From Culicoidibacter larvae (GTDB taxonomy: Bacteria > Bacillota_I > Bacilli_A > Culicoidibacterales > Culicoidibacteraceae), in NCBI RefSeq assembly GCF_005771635.1, contig NZ_VBWP01000003.1, positions 1 to 64,000 on the forward strand: a stretch of 64,000 nucleotides of DNA, given 5' to 3'. Positions 14,347 through 44,317 of the stretch are shown here, one piece after another. The notes beneath the pieces were generated by a model. That model was not told where the DNA came from, ran no database searches, and saw nothing but the letters and a program-made list of their open reading frames with translations. The position numbers and the translations under genes were made by a program. Positions within the stretch are counted from its first letter, which is position 1. The number at the start of each line of letters is the position of its first letter.

Positions 14347-15858
14347 CTACCCCCTTAATAATAAATTGAGATCAAAAGTATTCATATCTTTCAGATGCGG
14401 ATTGACAATCTGTGCCACCTGTTTCCCATCTAAATTCAACTGAATAACAATATTCTCATTACTGCCACTATCTTTACCGAGCGCCTTATGTCCACTTGTA
14501 AGTGGAATAACTGATGTCTTTGCTCCACGCTGAAGCAACATTTCCGGACCAGCTTCCCCAACAATTGCCATCCCGCCGGACATAACTGTCCCACCTTTAG
14601 CAAGCATAGGAAGTGCGCCAATATTAACTCCAGGAATATTATTAATCCCAGAAATTACAAAGTTAATTGGGCTAATTACAAAATCATTAATCATTCCCTT
14701 AATATTTTGAATTGCTCCATCAATAGCACCGAAAATTGCGTCTCCAATACCAGCAAAAAATCCAGACACCGCATCCCAAACGCTTTTCACTTTGTTCCAA
14801 GCTGTCGTAAAGGCATTAATAATGAAATCTTTTACTCCACTAATGACACCCGTAATTGTATCTATTACTCCACCAATGAAGCTACCGATAGCACTAAATA
14901 TACCCATAACAATTGGTGATAATGTTTCCCAAATAGCAATTATTATTGCTATAGCTGTTTGAATTATTACCCAAATCACTTCCATAACGACCACAATAAA
15001 ATCCCAAATTGCTTGGAATACTGCCATAATAGTTTCTCCGTGCTCTTCCCAAATTGCCATAATGGTTTCAACTATTACTGAAATAATACTCCAAATCACT
15101 TCCATAACAACTACAATAAAATCCCAAATTGCTTGAAATACTGCCGTTATTGTGTCACCATGCTCTTCCCAAATTGCCATGATTGTTTCCACTACCACTA
15201 CAATAACATTCCAAATTACTTCCATTGCCATCATAATGAAATCCCAAATTGCTTGAAATACCATCTTAATTTCTTCTTCGTGCTCTGTCCAAAACTTAGA
15301 TAAATCTTGAATTATTGCTCCAATAAATGCAAGTAAATCATCCATGATGGAGGAAATTCCTTCTTGAATACTATTCCAGATTCCTAAAACTGCATTTCTA
15401 AATTCTTCGTTTGTATTCCAAAAATGCATTAATGCAGCAACTGCCGCTGCAATAACTATCGCAATAAGTGCAATCCATCCTCCAGACAATTTTGTTGCAT
15501 CCCCCAGTGACTTCATCGCTTTTGCCGTTCCTTGAACAACTCCCGCCGCATTTCCTGCTAACCCGCCAAACAATGCAAGCGAATCAAGAAATCCAGTCAA
15601 TTCAGGAGGAGCAACATCTTTCAAGTTTTTTGCTAACTTTTCTAAGCTAGATCCTGCATCCTTTATTCCTCCTGCAAAATCAATAAACTCTTTACTTATT
15701 TTTGGAGTCTTCACTTCTTTGAACTCAGCATCAATAACTACAGGCTTTACTGCTGGCAAATGTTTTACATAAGGAATAAGCGGCATTTTTACTTCTGGAA
15801 CATCAACCTTAACTACCTCATACTTAGCATCAATAACTACTAATTCATTCTTCGCCAT
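14347..15858 (-). CDS. Short tail tape-measure protein
   Basis: A 503-residue protein with a Gly/Ala-rich hydrophobic region and long amphipathic repeats. Residues around 195-310 are built from a 40-residue unit (FQAIWDFI...ETIMAIWEEHG) present about three times. The C-terminus has GGTVMSGGMAIVGEAGPEML, a tape-measure signature. The family sets tail length; at roughly 1.5 angstrom per residue this would give a tail near 75 nm, an inference. Most phage tape measures are longer. ATG 15858 follows AAAGGAGTGG. Confidence 0.85.
   Translation of the reverse strand: MAKNELVVIDAKYEVVKVDVPEVKMPLIPYVKHLPAVKPVVIDAEFKEVKTPKISKEFIDFAGGIKDAGSSLEKLAKNLKDVAPPELTGFLDSLALFGGLAGNAAGVVQGTAKAMKSLGDATKLSGGWIALIAIVIAAAVAALMHFWNTNEEFRNAVLGIWNSIQEGISSIMDDLLAFIGAIIQDLSKFWTEHEEEIKMVFQAIWDFIMMAMEVIWNVIVVVVETIMAIWEEHGDTITAVFQAIWDFIVVVMEVIWSIISVIVETIMAIWEEHGETIMAVFQAIWDFIVVVMEVIWVIIQTAIAIIIAIWETLSPIVMGIFSAIGSFIGGVIDTITGVISGVKDFIINAFTTAWNKVKSVWDAVSGFFAGIGDAIFGAIDGAIQNIKGMINDFVISPINFVISGINNIPGVNIGALPMLAKGGTVMSGGMAIVGEAGPEMLLQRGAKTSVIPLTSGHKALGKDSGSNENIVIQLNLDGKQVAQIVNPHLKDMNTFDLNLLLRG
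14990..15290 (-). repeat. 120-bp tandem repeats in the tape-measure gene
   Basis: About two and a half diverged copies of a 120-bp unit (40 codons). A change in copy number would lengthen or shorten the tail in steps without breaking the frame. Confidence 0.8.
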
Positions 15859-40882: not shown

Positions 40883-40911
40883 TTGAAAATGATGAAAAAA
40901 AGCAGTATAAT
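40883..40911 (+). promoter_or_regulatory. Promoter of the antitoxin RNA
   Basis: TTGAAA (40883-40888), exactly 17 bases, TATAAT (40906-40911). Among the best consensus promoters in the window, and it reads into no protein gene. Confidence 0.88.
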
Positions 40912-40917
40912 AAAAAC

Positions 40918-40981
40918 ACCAAGTGATAACAAAAACCATATGAACAAAAAAAAGAGAAGCTCTGCAAAGCTTCTCTTTTTA
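40918..40981 (+). ncRNA. Antitoxin RNA of a par/Fst-like type I toxin-antitoxin locus
   Basis: A transcript of about 64 bases is predicted from the promoter at 40883 to the terminator at 40952-40981. Its 5' part carries AGTGATAACA-N5-CATATGAACA, which also occurs (with N4) over the start codon of the opposing toxin gene. Because the two RNAs run in opposite directions, the repeats are complementary between them, as are the shared terminator stems. RNA II of plasmid par has the same size and plan. No coding potential of note. Confidence 0.82.
40922..40946. repeat. Direct repeat DRb-like (antitoxin 5' region)
   Basis: AGTGATAACA, five bases, CATATGAACA. Partner copy at 41067-41090. Confidence 0.92.
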
Positions 40982-40982
40982 T
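40950..40982. terminator. Bidirectional terminator shared by toxin and antitoxin RNAs
   Basis: AAGAGAAGCT-CTGCAA-AGCTTCTCTT with A8 on the left and T5 on the right. Confidence 0.9.
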
Positions 40983-41005
40983 TTTTCTGTGACATAACTA
41001 CTTAC

Positions 41006-41083
41006 TTAATCATCCTTCTTGCCTCGATCAATTTGTCGAATCAAGAGTATAATCAATAAAATCACCAGTGATAACAGCTCCAT
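41006..41083 (-). CDS. Small hydrophobic toxin peptide, Fst-like (25 residues)
   Basis: A 25-codon ORF with one of the best ribosome sites in the window (AGGAGG, seven bases before ATG 41083). The peptide starts MELLSLVILLIILLI, a single membrane helix, and ends with a charged tail finishing GKKDD. Size and helix-plus-charged-tail design match Fst/Ldr-type membrane toxins, though the Pro of typical Fst is absent. The convergent antisense RNA, shared terminator and paired direct repeats support the call. An extended -10 promoter lies upstream. Expected role: membrane damage when not silenced; chromosomal purpose unknown. Confidence 0.8.
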   Translation of the reverse strand: MELLSLVILLIILLIRQIDRGKKDD

Positions 41084-41090
41084 ATGAACA
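41067..41090. repeat. Direct repeat DRa-like (toxin start region)
   Basis: AGTGATAACA, four bases, CATATGAACA; spans the toxin ATG and first codons. Confidence 0.92.
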
Positions 41091-41127
41091 CCTCCTTCCA
41101 GAGGCGATATAGTATTGCCACTCAGCA

Positions 41128-41136
41128 ATTATAACA
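41128..41136 (-). promoter_or_regulatory. Extended -10 promoter of the toxin gene
   Basis: Minus-strand TGTTATAAT (TG-n-TATAAT; hexamer 41128-41133), without a good -35 box. Predicted mRNA of about 170 bases ends at the shared terminator. Confidence 0.7.
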
Positions 41137-41208
41137 CAGAAATTTTAACCAAATTCACACATTTTAATTTTTTATCTATTTTTAGTATTTTACGCGATGA
41201 AACCTCAA

Positions 41209-42741: not shown

Positions 42742-44067
42742 TTACACGCTGATACCAAAAATGACGCCAACAACAAAGTTAGCTATGAATATGATGTCTA
42801 GCACCCAGAGCAAGACCGGTATTTCACGGTAGCGGCCTTTAGCAACCATTGCGATAGTATAGAAGATAAATCCAATCGCAATCCCTTTGGCGATACTGTA
42901 AGTCAGCAGCATGAAAATGATGATGAAAAACGTTCCGATGACCACTGGCTCATCGCTGAAGTCGACATCACGCAGCGATTCGACCATCAGTGCGCCAACT
43001 AGAATCAACGCTGGTGCGGTGATTGCCGGCACTTGGGCAATGGTAATGATGAGCGGCGCGAAGAAGAGCGAAAGTAAGAAACAAAGTGCCGTGAAGACTG
43101 CTGAAAGTCCAGTACGACCGCCAACTTCAACACCAGTTAATGACTCAACAAATGATGTCACTGATGAAGTACCTAAAACGGCACCGATTGTAGTAGCAAT
43201 CGCATCACCGAACATTGCCCGGCCCATGTTTTTCACATTGCCTTCTTCATCCACTAAACCAGCCCGTTTAGTGACTGCCAACAAAGTACCGGCAGTATCA
43301 AAGAAGTCAACAAATAAGAACGCAAATATAATCGGTATAAACTGCCAAGTGAATACTGTTGGTATTGCTTCAAATACTGCACCAAAGGTTCCATCCAATG
43401 ACGGAATTGCGCCAAACACTGCGGTTGGCATTGGAACAATTCCTGCAACCATCCCGATAACTGTTGTCCCGACTAAACCAATAAAAATAGCTGCTGGAAT
43501 CTTCTTTACCATTAAAACTAAGGTAATAACTAAACCGACAACAGTTAAAATAACTGCCGGGTCACCAAGATTACCAAATGTAACAAAAGTTGCTTCGCTG
43601 GCAACAATCAATCCTGAGTTTTTCAAACCAACAAAAGCAATAAAAAACCCAATTCCAACGGCAACTGCTGCTCGCAGCGACTGCGGAATTGCTTTAATAA
43701 TCTTCTCACGAACACCACTTACTGATAAACAAATAAAGAGCACCCCGGAAATAAAAATTCCTGCTAATGCCTGTTGCCATGTATAACCCATAACAATAAC
43801 AACACCATATGCAAAGAAGGCATTCATCCCCATGCCGGGCGCTAACGCTACCGGCAAGTTTGCCATAAATGCCATAATCAGCGTCCCAATCACCGCTGAA
43901 AGTGCAGTTGCAACAAAAACTGCATCCGAATCCATTCCAGTTGCCGACAAAATTGCCGGGTTAACAACCAAGATGTAAGCCATTGCCAAGAACGTTGTCG
44001 TTCCTGAGATAGCCTCAGTTCGAAGATTCGTTTTGTTCTCCTTCAAATGAAATAACTTTTCAAGCAT
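42742..44067 (-). CDS. pbuG: Guanine/hypoxanthine permease (AzgA-like NCS2)
   Basis: A 441-residue transporter of the AzgA branch: RTEAISGTTTFLAMAYILVVNP at the start (positions 14 on), GMGMNAFFAYGVV, FVDFFDTAGTLLAV and TSSVTSFVESLTGVEVGGRTG. About 12-14 helices. ATG 44067 has GGAGG upstream. The purine riboswitch of the guanine class in its leader supports import of guanine or hypoxanthine. The gene symbol follows Bacillus usage. Confidence 0.88.
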   Translation of the reverse strand: MLEKLFHLKENKTNLRTEAISGTTTFLAMAYILVVNPAILSATGMDSDAVFVATALSAVIGTLIMAFMANLPVALAPGMGMNAFFAYGVVIVMGYTWQQALAGIFISGVLFICLSVSGVREKIIKAIPQSLRAAVAVGIGFFIAFVGLKNSGLIVASEATFVTFGNLGDPAVILTVVGLVITLVLMVKKIPAAIFIGLVGTTVIGMVAGIVPMPTAVFGAIPSLDGTFGAVFEAIPTVFTWQFIPIIFAFLFVDFFDTAGTLLAVTKRAGLVDEEGNVKNMGRAMFGDAIATTIGAVLGTSSVTSFVESLTGVEVGGRTGLSAVFTALCFLLSLFFAPLIITIAQVPAITAPALILVGALMVESLRDVDFSDEPVVIGTFFIIIFMLLTYSIAKGIAIGFIFYTIAMVAKGRYREIPVLLWVLDIIFIANFVVGVIFGISV

Positions 44068-44118
44068 ATACCTAAAACCTCCATGTTTTCTTTCTTCAAC
44101 TCCTATTTTTAAAAACAA

Positions 44119-44150: not shown

Positions 44151-44184
44151 GCGAAAAAATAACAAAAAAGATGCTTCGTTATTC

Positions 44185-44256
44185 TTATCGTAGTCTGCTG
44201 ATTTACGGTTAGCAGGTAGAGACATTTGGACCATATTTCCAAAAATATACGAGTCT
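44185..44256 (-). promoter_or_regulatory. Purine riboswitch, guanine class
   Basis: The aptamer core on the minus strand shows ACTCGTATA, AATATGGTCC, GTCTCTACCTGCTAACCGTAAA (read as two adjoining motifs: P2-loop TCTACC and ACCGTAAA) and GACTACGA. P1 pairs TCGTA (44248-44252) with TACGA (44188-44192). The J3/1 base in GACTA is C, the guanine-specific residue. Its promoter is TTGCTT (44293-44298) -17- TAGTAT (44270-44275). Confidence 0.92.
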
Positions 44257-44317
44257 TGAAGATAACTTAATACTACCAAAAATAGAACTTAAAAGCAATC
44301 TTTCTGAGGACAAAAAA

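What the first reader, a model, noticed from the sequence alone, without database searches (positions are those of the whole stretch)
40883..41136. Chromosomal par/Fst-like type I toxin-antitoxin locus in about 250 bp
Seen: a 25-codon hydrophobic peptide ORF (minus, ATG 41083) with AGGAGG; a near-consensus promoter facing it (TTGAAA-17-TATAAT, 40883); a bidirectional terminator between them (40952-40977); and two direct repeats, AGTGATAACA-N5-CATATGAACA at 40922 and AGTGATAACA-N4-CATATGAACA at 41067, the second spanning the toxin start codon. Known: plasmid pAD1 par uses exactly this plan, with convergent RNAs, shared terminator and repeats DRa/DRb that let a short RNA II block Fst translation. 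The predicted antitoxin RNA of about 64 bases is the par RNA II size. The peptide lacks the Fst Pro, so it may be a new branch.
Basis: partly seen in the sequence, partly recalled or inferred. Interest (0 to 1): 0.92.

Follow-up and report, generated by a model that had tools for sequence, protein, structure and literature searches.

The report
Eight par-like antisense toxin-antitoxin cassettes
A 250-base stretch looks like a tiny gene for a membrane peptide, probably toxic, that a matching antisense RNA keeps switched off; the same genome carries seven more intact copies, and they are built like the plasmid addiction system par of enterococci but with a peptide that is not recognisably the same.

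Summary
The eight have convergent -10 boxes, a shared two-way terminator, an mRNA hairpin over the Shine-Dalgarno site, a 5'-3' "upstream helix" and repeats around the toxin start codon, the plan of par(pAD1). Paired bases covary across copies. By duplex energy each antisense RNA fits its own mRNA best; seven of eight beat all shuffles, while P4's match is weak and by repeat score is not its best. The peptide frame evolves as coding DNA. So the working model (type I toxin-antitoxin, par mechanism) is well supported from sequence; expression and toxicity are untested. The peptide fails the Fst membership tests (no P/D/S/TxxxG, no tryptophan, no Fst Pfam match, no profile similarity), although these tests recognise most true Fst yardsticks. 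No relative was found outside this genome in the samples searched. Three copies sit in duplicated segments whose near flanks are 81-93% identical while the toxin frames are only 43-54% identical, which points to cassette exchange or concerted divergence. Verdict: a new variant of a known kind.

The parts
40883..40911 (+). RNA II (antitoxin) promoter, TTGAAA-17-TATAAT
   Evidence: 11 of 12 consensus bases
40918..40982 (+). predicted antitoxin RNA II, about 65 nt (ends inferred)
   Evidence: ends inferred from promoter and terminator, not measured
40922..40931 (+). repeat AGTGATAACA, RNA II copy (DRb-like)
   Evidence: read; local alignment
40936..40946 (+). repeat CCATATGAACA, RNA II copy (DRa-like)
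40949..40980 (.). shared bidirectional terminator
   Evidence: covarying stem across 8 paralogs
40946..41121 (-). predicted toxin mRNA (RNA I), about 176 nt
   Evidence: fold z-score -4.84 for 40946-41125
40989..41002 (-). 3' strand of the upstream helix
   Evidence: covariation
41006..41083 (-). toxin-like peptide ORF, 25 codons plus stop, one hydrophobic stretch and a charged tail
   Evidence: coding signature across 8 paralogs
41067..41076 (-). repeat AGTGATAACA, mRNA copy (codons 3-6)
   Evidence: read
41080..41090 (-). repeat CCATATGAACA, mRNA copy over the start codon
41090..41105 (-). hairpin that sequesters the Shine-Dalgarno AGGAGG (41096-41091)
   Evidence: helix 3
41109..41121 (-). 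5' strand of the upstream helix
   Evidence: helices 1-2
41128..41138 (-). toxin promoter, extended -10 TGTGTTATAAT, no good -35
   Evidence: read; TGn-TATAAT in 5 of 8 paralogs by eye

Best explanation
This is a type I toxin-antitoxin cassette with the regulatory plan of par(pAD1). The minus strand makes an mRNA (RNA I) for a short membrane peptide. Its 5' end is locked in a helix with the region before the terminator, and its ribosome site is closed by a hairpin. The plus strand makes a small antisense RNA (RNA II) that ends in the same terminator. The two RNAs can meet through the complementary terminator loops, and two short repeats then let RNA II pair over the start codon and block translation. 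If RNA II falls, for instance when the DNA is lost or transcription stops, the peptide is made and would damage the membrane or arrest the cell. The layout, the covarying RNA folds, the locus-specific repeats and the coding frame are shown from sequence. Transcription, RNA contact, RNA stability, translation block and toxicity are inferred from the par system. The toxin is a distinct peptide class (ME, 13 mostly hydrophobic residues, R, charged tail) without the Fst signature.
For: Eight intact copies in one genome, found by profile and by RNA model; P1, P5 and P8 were found with a model they did not help build (95.3, 77.8 and 74.8 bits). RNA I structure on the model-fitted alignment: 96.3% of cells paired, 16 double changes, 0 of 500 shuffles as high for these two measures; 50 of 500 for the count of pair types. 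Cognate RNA II-mRNA duplex energy best in all 8 rows and all 8 columns; 7 of 8 beat 1000 of 1000 shuffles. Coding: pooled pS 0.763, pN 0.279; second codon positions differ 9.6% against 52.5% and 60.3%. Six true Fst loci show the repeats at the same place relative to the start codon. Features of par as listed in PMC7472228 (passages).
Against: No transcript or toxicity data. P4 keeps its frame but its repeats are weak: 12 of 1000 shuffles as good by energy and 63 of 1000 by repeat score, and by repeat score P4 is not its own best partner (own 10.3; P4's RNA II scores 11.9 on P8, and P3's RNA II 12.1 on P4), so the diagonal is best in 7 of 8 rows and columns by that measure (also 110 of 500). 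With a wider downstream stretch P7 is also weak (48 of 500), though its RNA II head is not (0 of 1000). One pair (P1-P6) has pN above pS. The peptide has neither Pro nor Gly in the membrane part, and these are reported as essential in Fst(pAD1) (PMC7472228, section 4). No relative was found outside this genome, so conservation rests on paralogs.
Confidence: 0.85

Rival explanations
1. A true but strongly diverged Fst/Ldr family member: same ancestor for toxin and chassis, with shortening of the membrane helix and loss of the motif and tryptophan.
For: Same regulatory plan with repeats at the same place. The peptide has R-x-I-D at the membrane exit in 6 of 8 intact copies, where the yardsticks have W-L-D. 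A true Fst locus (L080) exists in another genome of the same class. One of six yardsticks (L084) also lacks the xxxG motif.
Against: Profile-profile comparison gives probability 0.2. No Fst Pfam match in the own genome at E <= 1 or for the 8 copies, while 4 of 6 yardsticks match, the best at 1.6e-9. The Fst profile finds Fst, PepA1 and LdrD in the PDB, ours finds nothing. The RNA model gives 10 weak matches on the yardstick loci, none of which spans a toxin mRNA.
Confidence: 0.3
2. An antisense-regulated small membrane protein that is not a toxin, for example a modulator of a neighbouring transporter.
For: The window copy lies next to a permease gene, and the function of chromosomal par loci is open (PMC7472228, passages).
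Against: The copies lie in several different surroundings (P1, P2, P5 and P7 share flanks with no other copy), which fits a self-contained module.
Confidence: 0.12
3. Chance arrangement of a hydrophobic ORF, a terminator and promoter-like boxes.
For: Promoter-like sites are frequent in this stretch (8 found).
Against: Eight copies, covariation, locus-specific repeats and coding signature.
Confidence: 0.01

Closest known systems
par locus of plasmid pAD1 (Fst, RNA I, RNA II)
   Same: Convergent RNAs, shared terminator, repeats DRa and DRb at the toxin start, SD hairpin, 5' upstream helix (plan from PMC7472228, passages)
   Different: Peptide 23-25 aa without PxxxG (Fst has 33 aa); here eight intact copies in one genome
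Lpt locus of Lactobacillus plasmids
   Same: Same plan; the antitoxin is complementary over the start codon (PMC5608710, passages and section 11); the Fst-annotated locus of plasmid pLP5401 (L085) carries the repeats at the same place
   Different: Lpt has Pro11 (PMC6811638, passages) and L085 matches Fst in Pfam; this peptide does neither
True Fst locus L080 in another genome of the same class
   Same: Repeats over the start codon (4 of 500 shuffles as good); upstream helix and SD hairpin by eye
   Different: L080 peptide has PIVVG and W and was found with the Fst Pfam model
bsrG/SR4-type systems (recalled)
   Same: Small membrane peptide and convergent antisense RNA
   Different: Recalled: overlap at the 3' ends without repeats at the start codon; not tested here

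Membership tests
par-type regulatory module | convergent promoters | tested here: met
   for RNA II of the window copy; -10 boxes for both RNAs in 8 of 8 copies by eye; no good -35 for the window toxin promoter
par-type regulatory module | bidirectional intrinsic terminator shared by both RNAs | tested here: met
par-type regulatory module | direct repeats that let RNA II pair at the toxin start | tested here: met
   7 of 8 strongly, P4 weakly
par-type regulatory module | hairpin over the Shine-Dalgarno site | tested here: met
   helix 3, 93.8% of cells paired
par-type regulatory module | upstream helix at the mRNA 5' end | tested here: met
   helices 1 and 2, 100% and 81.5% paired
par-type regulatory module | U-turn motif in a loop | not tested
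   the review says not all homologs have it
Fst/Ldr toxin family | P/D/S/TxxxG(C) motif in the membrane part (in the majority of members) | tested here: not met
   0 of 8 intact copies; one of six yardsticks, L084, lacks it too
Fst/Ldr toxin family | tryptophan between helix and tail | tested here: not met
   0 of 8, 6 of 6 yardsticks; Fst(pAD1) itself has Val
Fst/Ldr toxin family | match to PF13955 or profile similarity | tested here: not met
   yardsticks 4 of 6 match at E up to 10, the first member at 31.6 bits, below Pfam's strict cut-off of 36
Fst/Ldr toxin family | short hydrophobic helix with charged tail | tested here: met
   sequence only; no structure was predicted
Fst/Ldr toxin family | toxicity on overexpression | not testable with these tools
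   needs an experiment

The most novel reading that the evidence does not exclude
A separate toxin class rides in the par chassis, and the whole 250-base module behaves as an exchangeable cassette. Copies swap in and out of a conserved slot, and toxin start and antisense repeat change together, so that co-resident modules stay mutually orthogonal. The par chassis would then be a general antisense control device, not a property of Fst toxins.
Probability: 0.35. Interest if true: 0.65.

Novelty: new variant of a known kind. Interest (0 to 1): 0.52.

Why it matters
If true, par regulation is uncoupled from the Fst toxin, which widens the search space for hidden type I systems: a search by Fst toxin sequence would miss these. 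Eight natural sense-antisense pairs with different repeats in one genome would also be a ready set for testing how short repeats give specificity and how such modules avoid cross-neutralisation.

Tried and rejected
Relatives elsewhere: single peptide over 100 genomes (L002-L005 read, no par layout); profile over 395 genomes of the class and 392 of the phylum; RNA model over 395 genomes (whose stricter filters also missed two of the nine own copies). These samples overlap. Outside hits that were read by eye: L020, L081 and L082, no par layout. L068 (the one outside hit) and eleven of the loci were scanned for SD-preceded small ORFs with a start repeat; none gave a candidate that I would follow (best 18.7, in L021). 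The other weak hits were not read; several lie in long open frames.

Databases: Pfam and PADLOC gave nothing above noise for the 8 intact copies; NCBIfam and PHROGs nothing above noise for 6 of the 8. Plasmids and phages by tblastn, one peptide each: none, while the true Fst peptide of L080 finds 219 plasmid records at E up to 10. DNA of the locus against plasmids and phages: only short partial matches covering 9-15% of the query. A DNA pattern that fits five of the eight copies found nothing in genome contigs or viral contigs. A looser pattern found L088, a longer phage-contig ORF, rejected.

Of the weaker hits of the RNA model in the own genome (54 at E <= 10) only some were scanned and none was taken as a further copy; several are the opposite strand of the same terminators.

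Automatic alignment A3 misplaced the upstream helix; it was replaced by a model-fitted alignment, which leans towards the given structure.

Literature (held library only): searches listed no paper whose title or shown abstract describes this peptide or these copies; only listings were seen except for the four papers cited, so this is no proof of absence. I guessed the genus Culicoidibacter; nothing confirmed it.

Full report
Observation. The window copy ranks first of 90 SD-preceded small ORFs in the window for similarity between its start region and the DNA past its stop; without the SD requirement it ranks sixth of 1683, behind five ORFs in a tandem repeat.

Paralogs. The peptide finds six further places in its own genome (G000, 2.5 Mb in 33 contigs). 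A profile of six copies gives nine places, and an RNA model has the same nine as its best of 54 hits at E <= 10. I call them P1 (window), P2 (C14), P3 (C24, a 3-kb contig), P4 (C3, 282.8 kb), P5 (C5), P6 (C3, 286.0 kb), P7 (C1), P8 (C15) and P9 (C3, 274.2 kb). P9 is decayed: no start codon at the aligned place, no terminator seen by eye, no start repeat (364 of 500 shuffles as good). It was left out of the counts below, which use the eight intact copies.

RNA structure. On the model-fitted alignment of eight copies, 24 pairs give 96.3% standard pairs, 9 pairs with changes on both sides and 16 such cells; no shuffle of 500 reaches any of these three, while 50 of 500 reach the number of pair types. 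Five of the eight copies built the model (P2, P3, P4, P6, P7), so the alignment leans to it; P1, P5 and P8 did not. The helices are the 5'-3' upstream helix, the hairpin over the SD site and the terminator, elements described for par (PMC7472228: abstract, passages and one section seen).

Repeats. The RNA II heads (terminator removed) were paired with a 48-nt start region of all copies. By duplex energy the cognate pair is strongest in 8 of 8 rows and 8 of 8 columns (-27.8 to -39.1 kcal/mol for seven, -17.3 for P4; the best non-cognate pair is -23.0). By repeat score the diagonal is best in 7 of 8 rows and columns; P4 is the exception. Seven beat all 1000 dinucleotide shuffles; for P4, 12 (energy) and 63 (score) of 1000 are as good. 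These energies ignore the RNAs' own folds. In a wider test on 200 bases downstream, P3 has 1, P4 110 and P7 48 of 500 shuffles as good; the other five intact copies have 0. Six true Fst loci treated the same way show the match over the start codon (0 of 500 for five, 4 of 500 for L080).

Coding. Over codons 1-16 of eight copies (28 pairs) pooled pS is 0.763 and pN 0.279; differences by codon position are 52.5, 9.6 and 60.3%. One pair (P1-P6) runs the other way.

Family membership. Fst/Ldr peptides carry a tryptophan (valine in Fst of pAD1), and most carry a P/D/S/TxxxG motif (PMC7472228, section 4). None of the eight has either. Pfam Fst does not match the own genome at E <= 1 nor the eight copies, but matches 4 of 6 yardsticks. 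The yardstick profile finds Fst, PepA1 and LdrD among solved structures; a profile of six of our copies finds nothing. Profile-profile probability is 0.2. For Lpt, proline 11 could be replaced by Ala or Val with toxicity kept but growth inhibition delayed (PMC6811638, passages), so loss of proline alone need not abolish function. PMC8309996 (passages) stresses that type I toxins share little sequence, so sequence tests alone cannot settle descent.

Genome context. P1 lies between an acyltransferase-DUF6320 pair and a xanthine/uracil permease. Named by eye: P5 lies by what looks like the rpoE delta gene, P2 by fructose PTS-like genes, P7 by genes that may belong to an integrated element. P3 lies beside an IMS polymerase and a YolD gene, and P8 beside a near-identical YolD frame. 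P3, P6 and P8 have alike flanks. For the pairs P3-P6, P6-P8 and P3-P8, identity is 80.9, 83.7 and 89.0% upstream (-400 to -60), 91.1, 91.8 and 92.8% downstream (+215 to +700), but only 45.8, 43.1 and 54.2% in the reading frame, while unrelated flanks align at about 37-47% (sharp drop at the module edge). P8's frame is closest to P5 (72.2%), which has unrelated flanks. On the RNA II side P3 and P8 are 91.0% identical, yet their antisense repeats differ and each fits its own mRNA. This suggests cassette exchange or concerted change; which of the two is not settled, and no tree test was run.

Distribution. No relative was found in the class and phylum samples, plasmids, phages, viral contigs or genome contigs, within the limits told under Tried and rejected. 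A true Fst locus was the only PF13955 match at E <= 0.001 in 295 genomes of the phylum.

Mechanism and verdict. The module most likely works as par does; the best explanation says what is shown and what is inferred. It is a new variant: the known chassis with a peptide that is not recognisably Fst.

Noticed in passing
44171-44272 (-): Purine riboswitch (RF00167, 75.8 bits) in front of a permease-like gene at 42742-44118 (named by eye).
   Followed up: no
1-729 and 14971-15294: Tandem repeats: 381-bp unit, 1.9 copies, 98% matches; 120-bp unit, 2.7 copies.
   Followed up: no
   Followed up: partly
L074, L078, L079: Duplicated segments around P6, P8 and P3 with alike flanks and different toxin cassettes.
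   Followed up: partly
L074:8327-16661: LRR and repeat-rich proteins with LPxTG-like ends near P4, P6 and P9 (named by eye).
   Followed up: no
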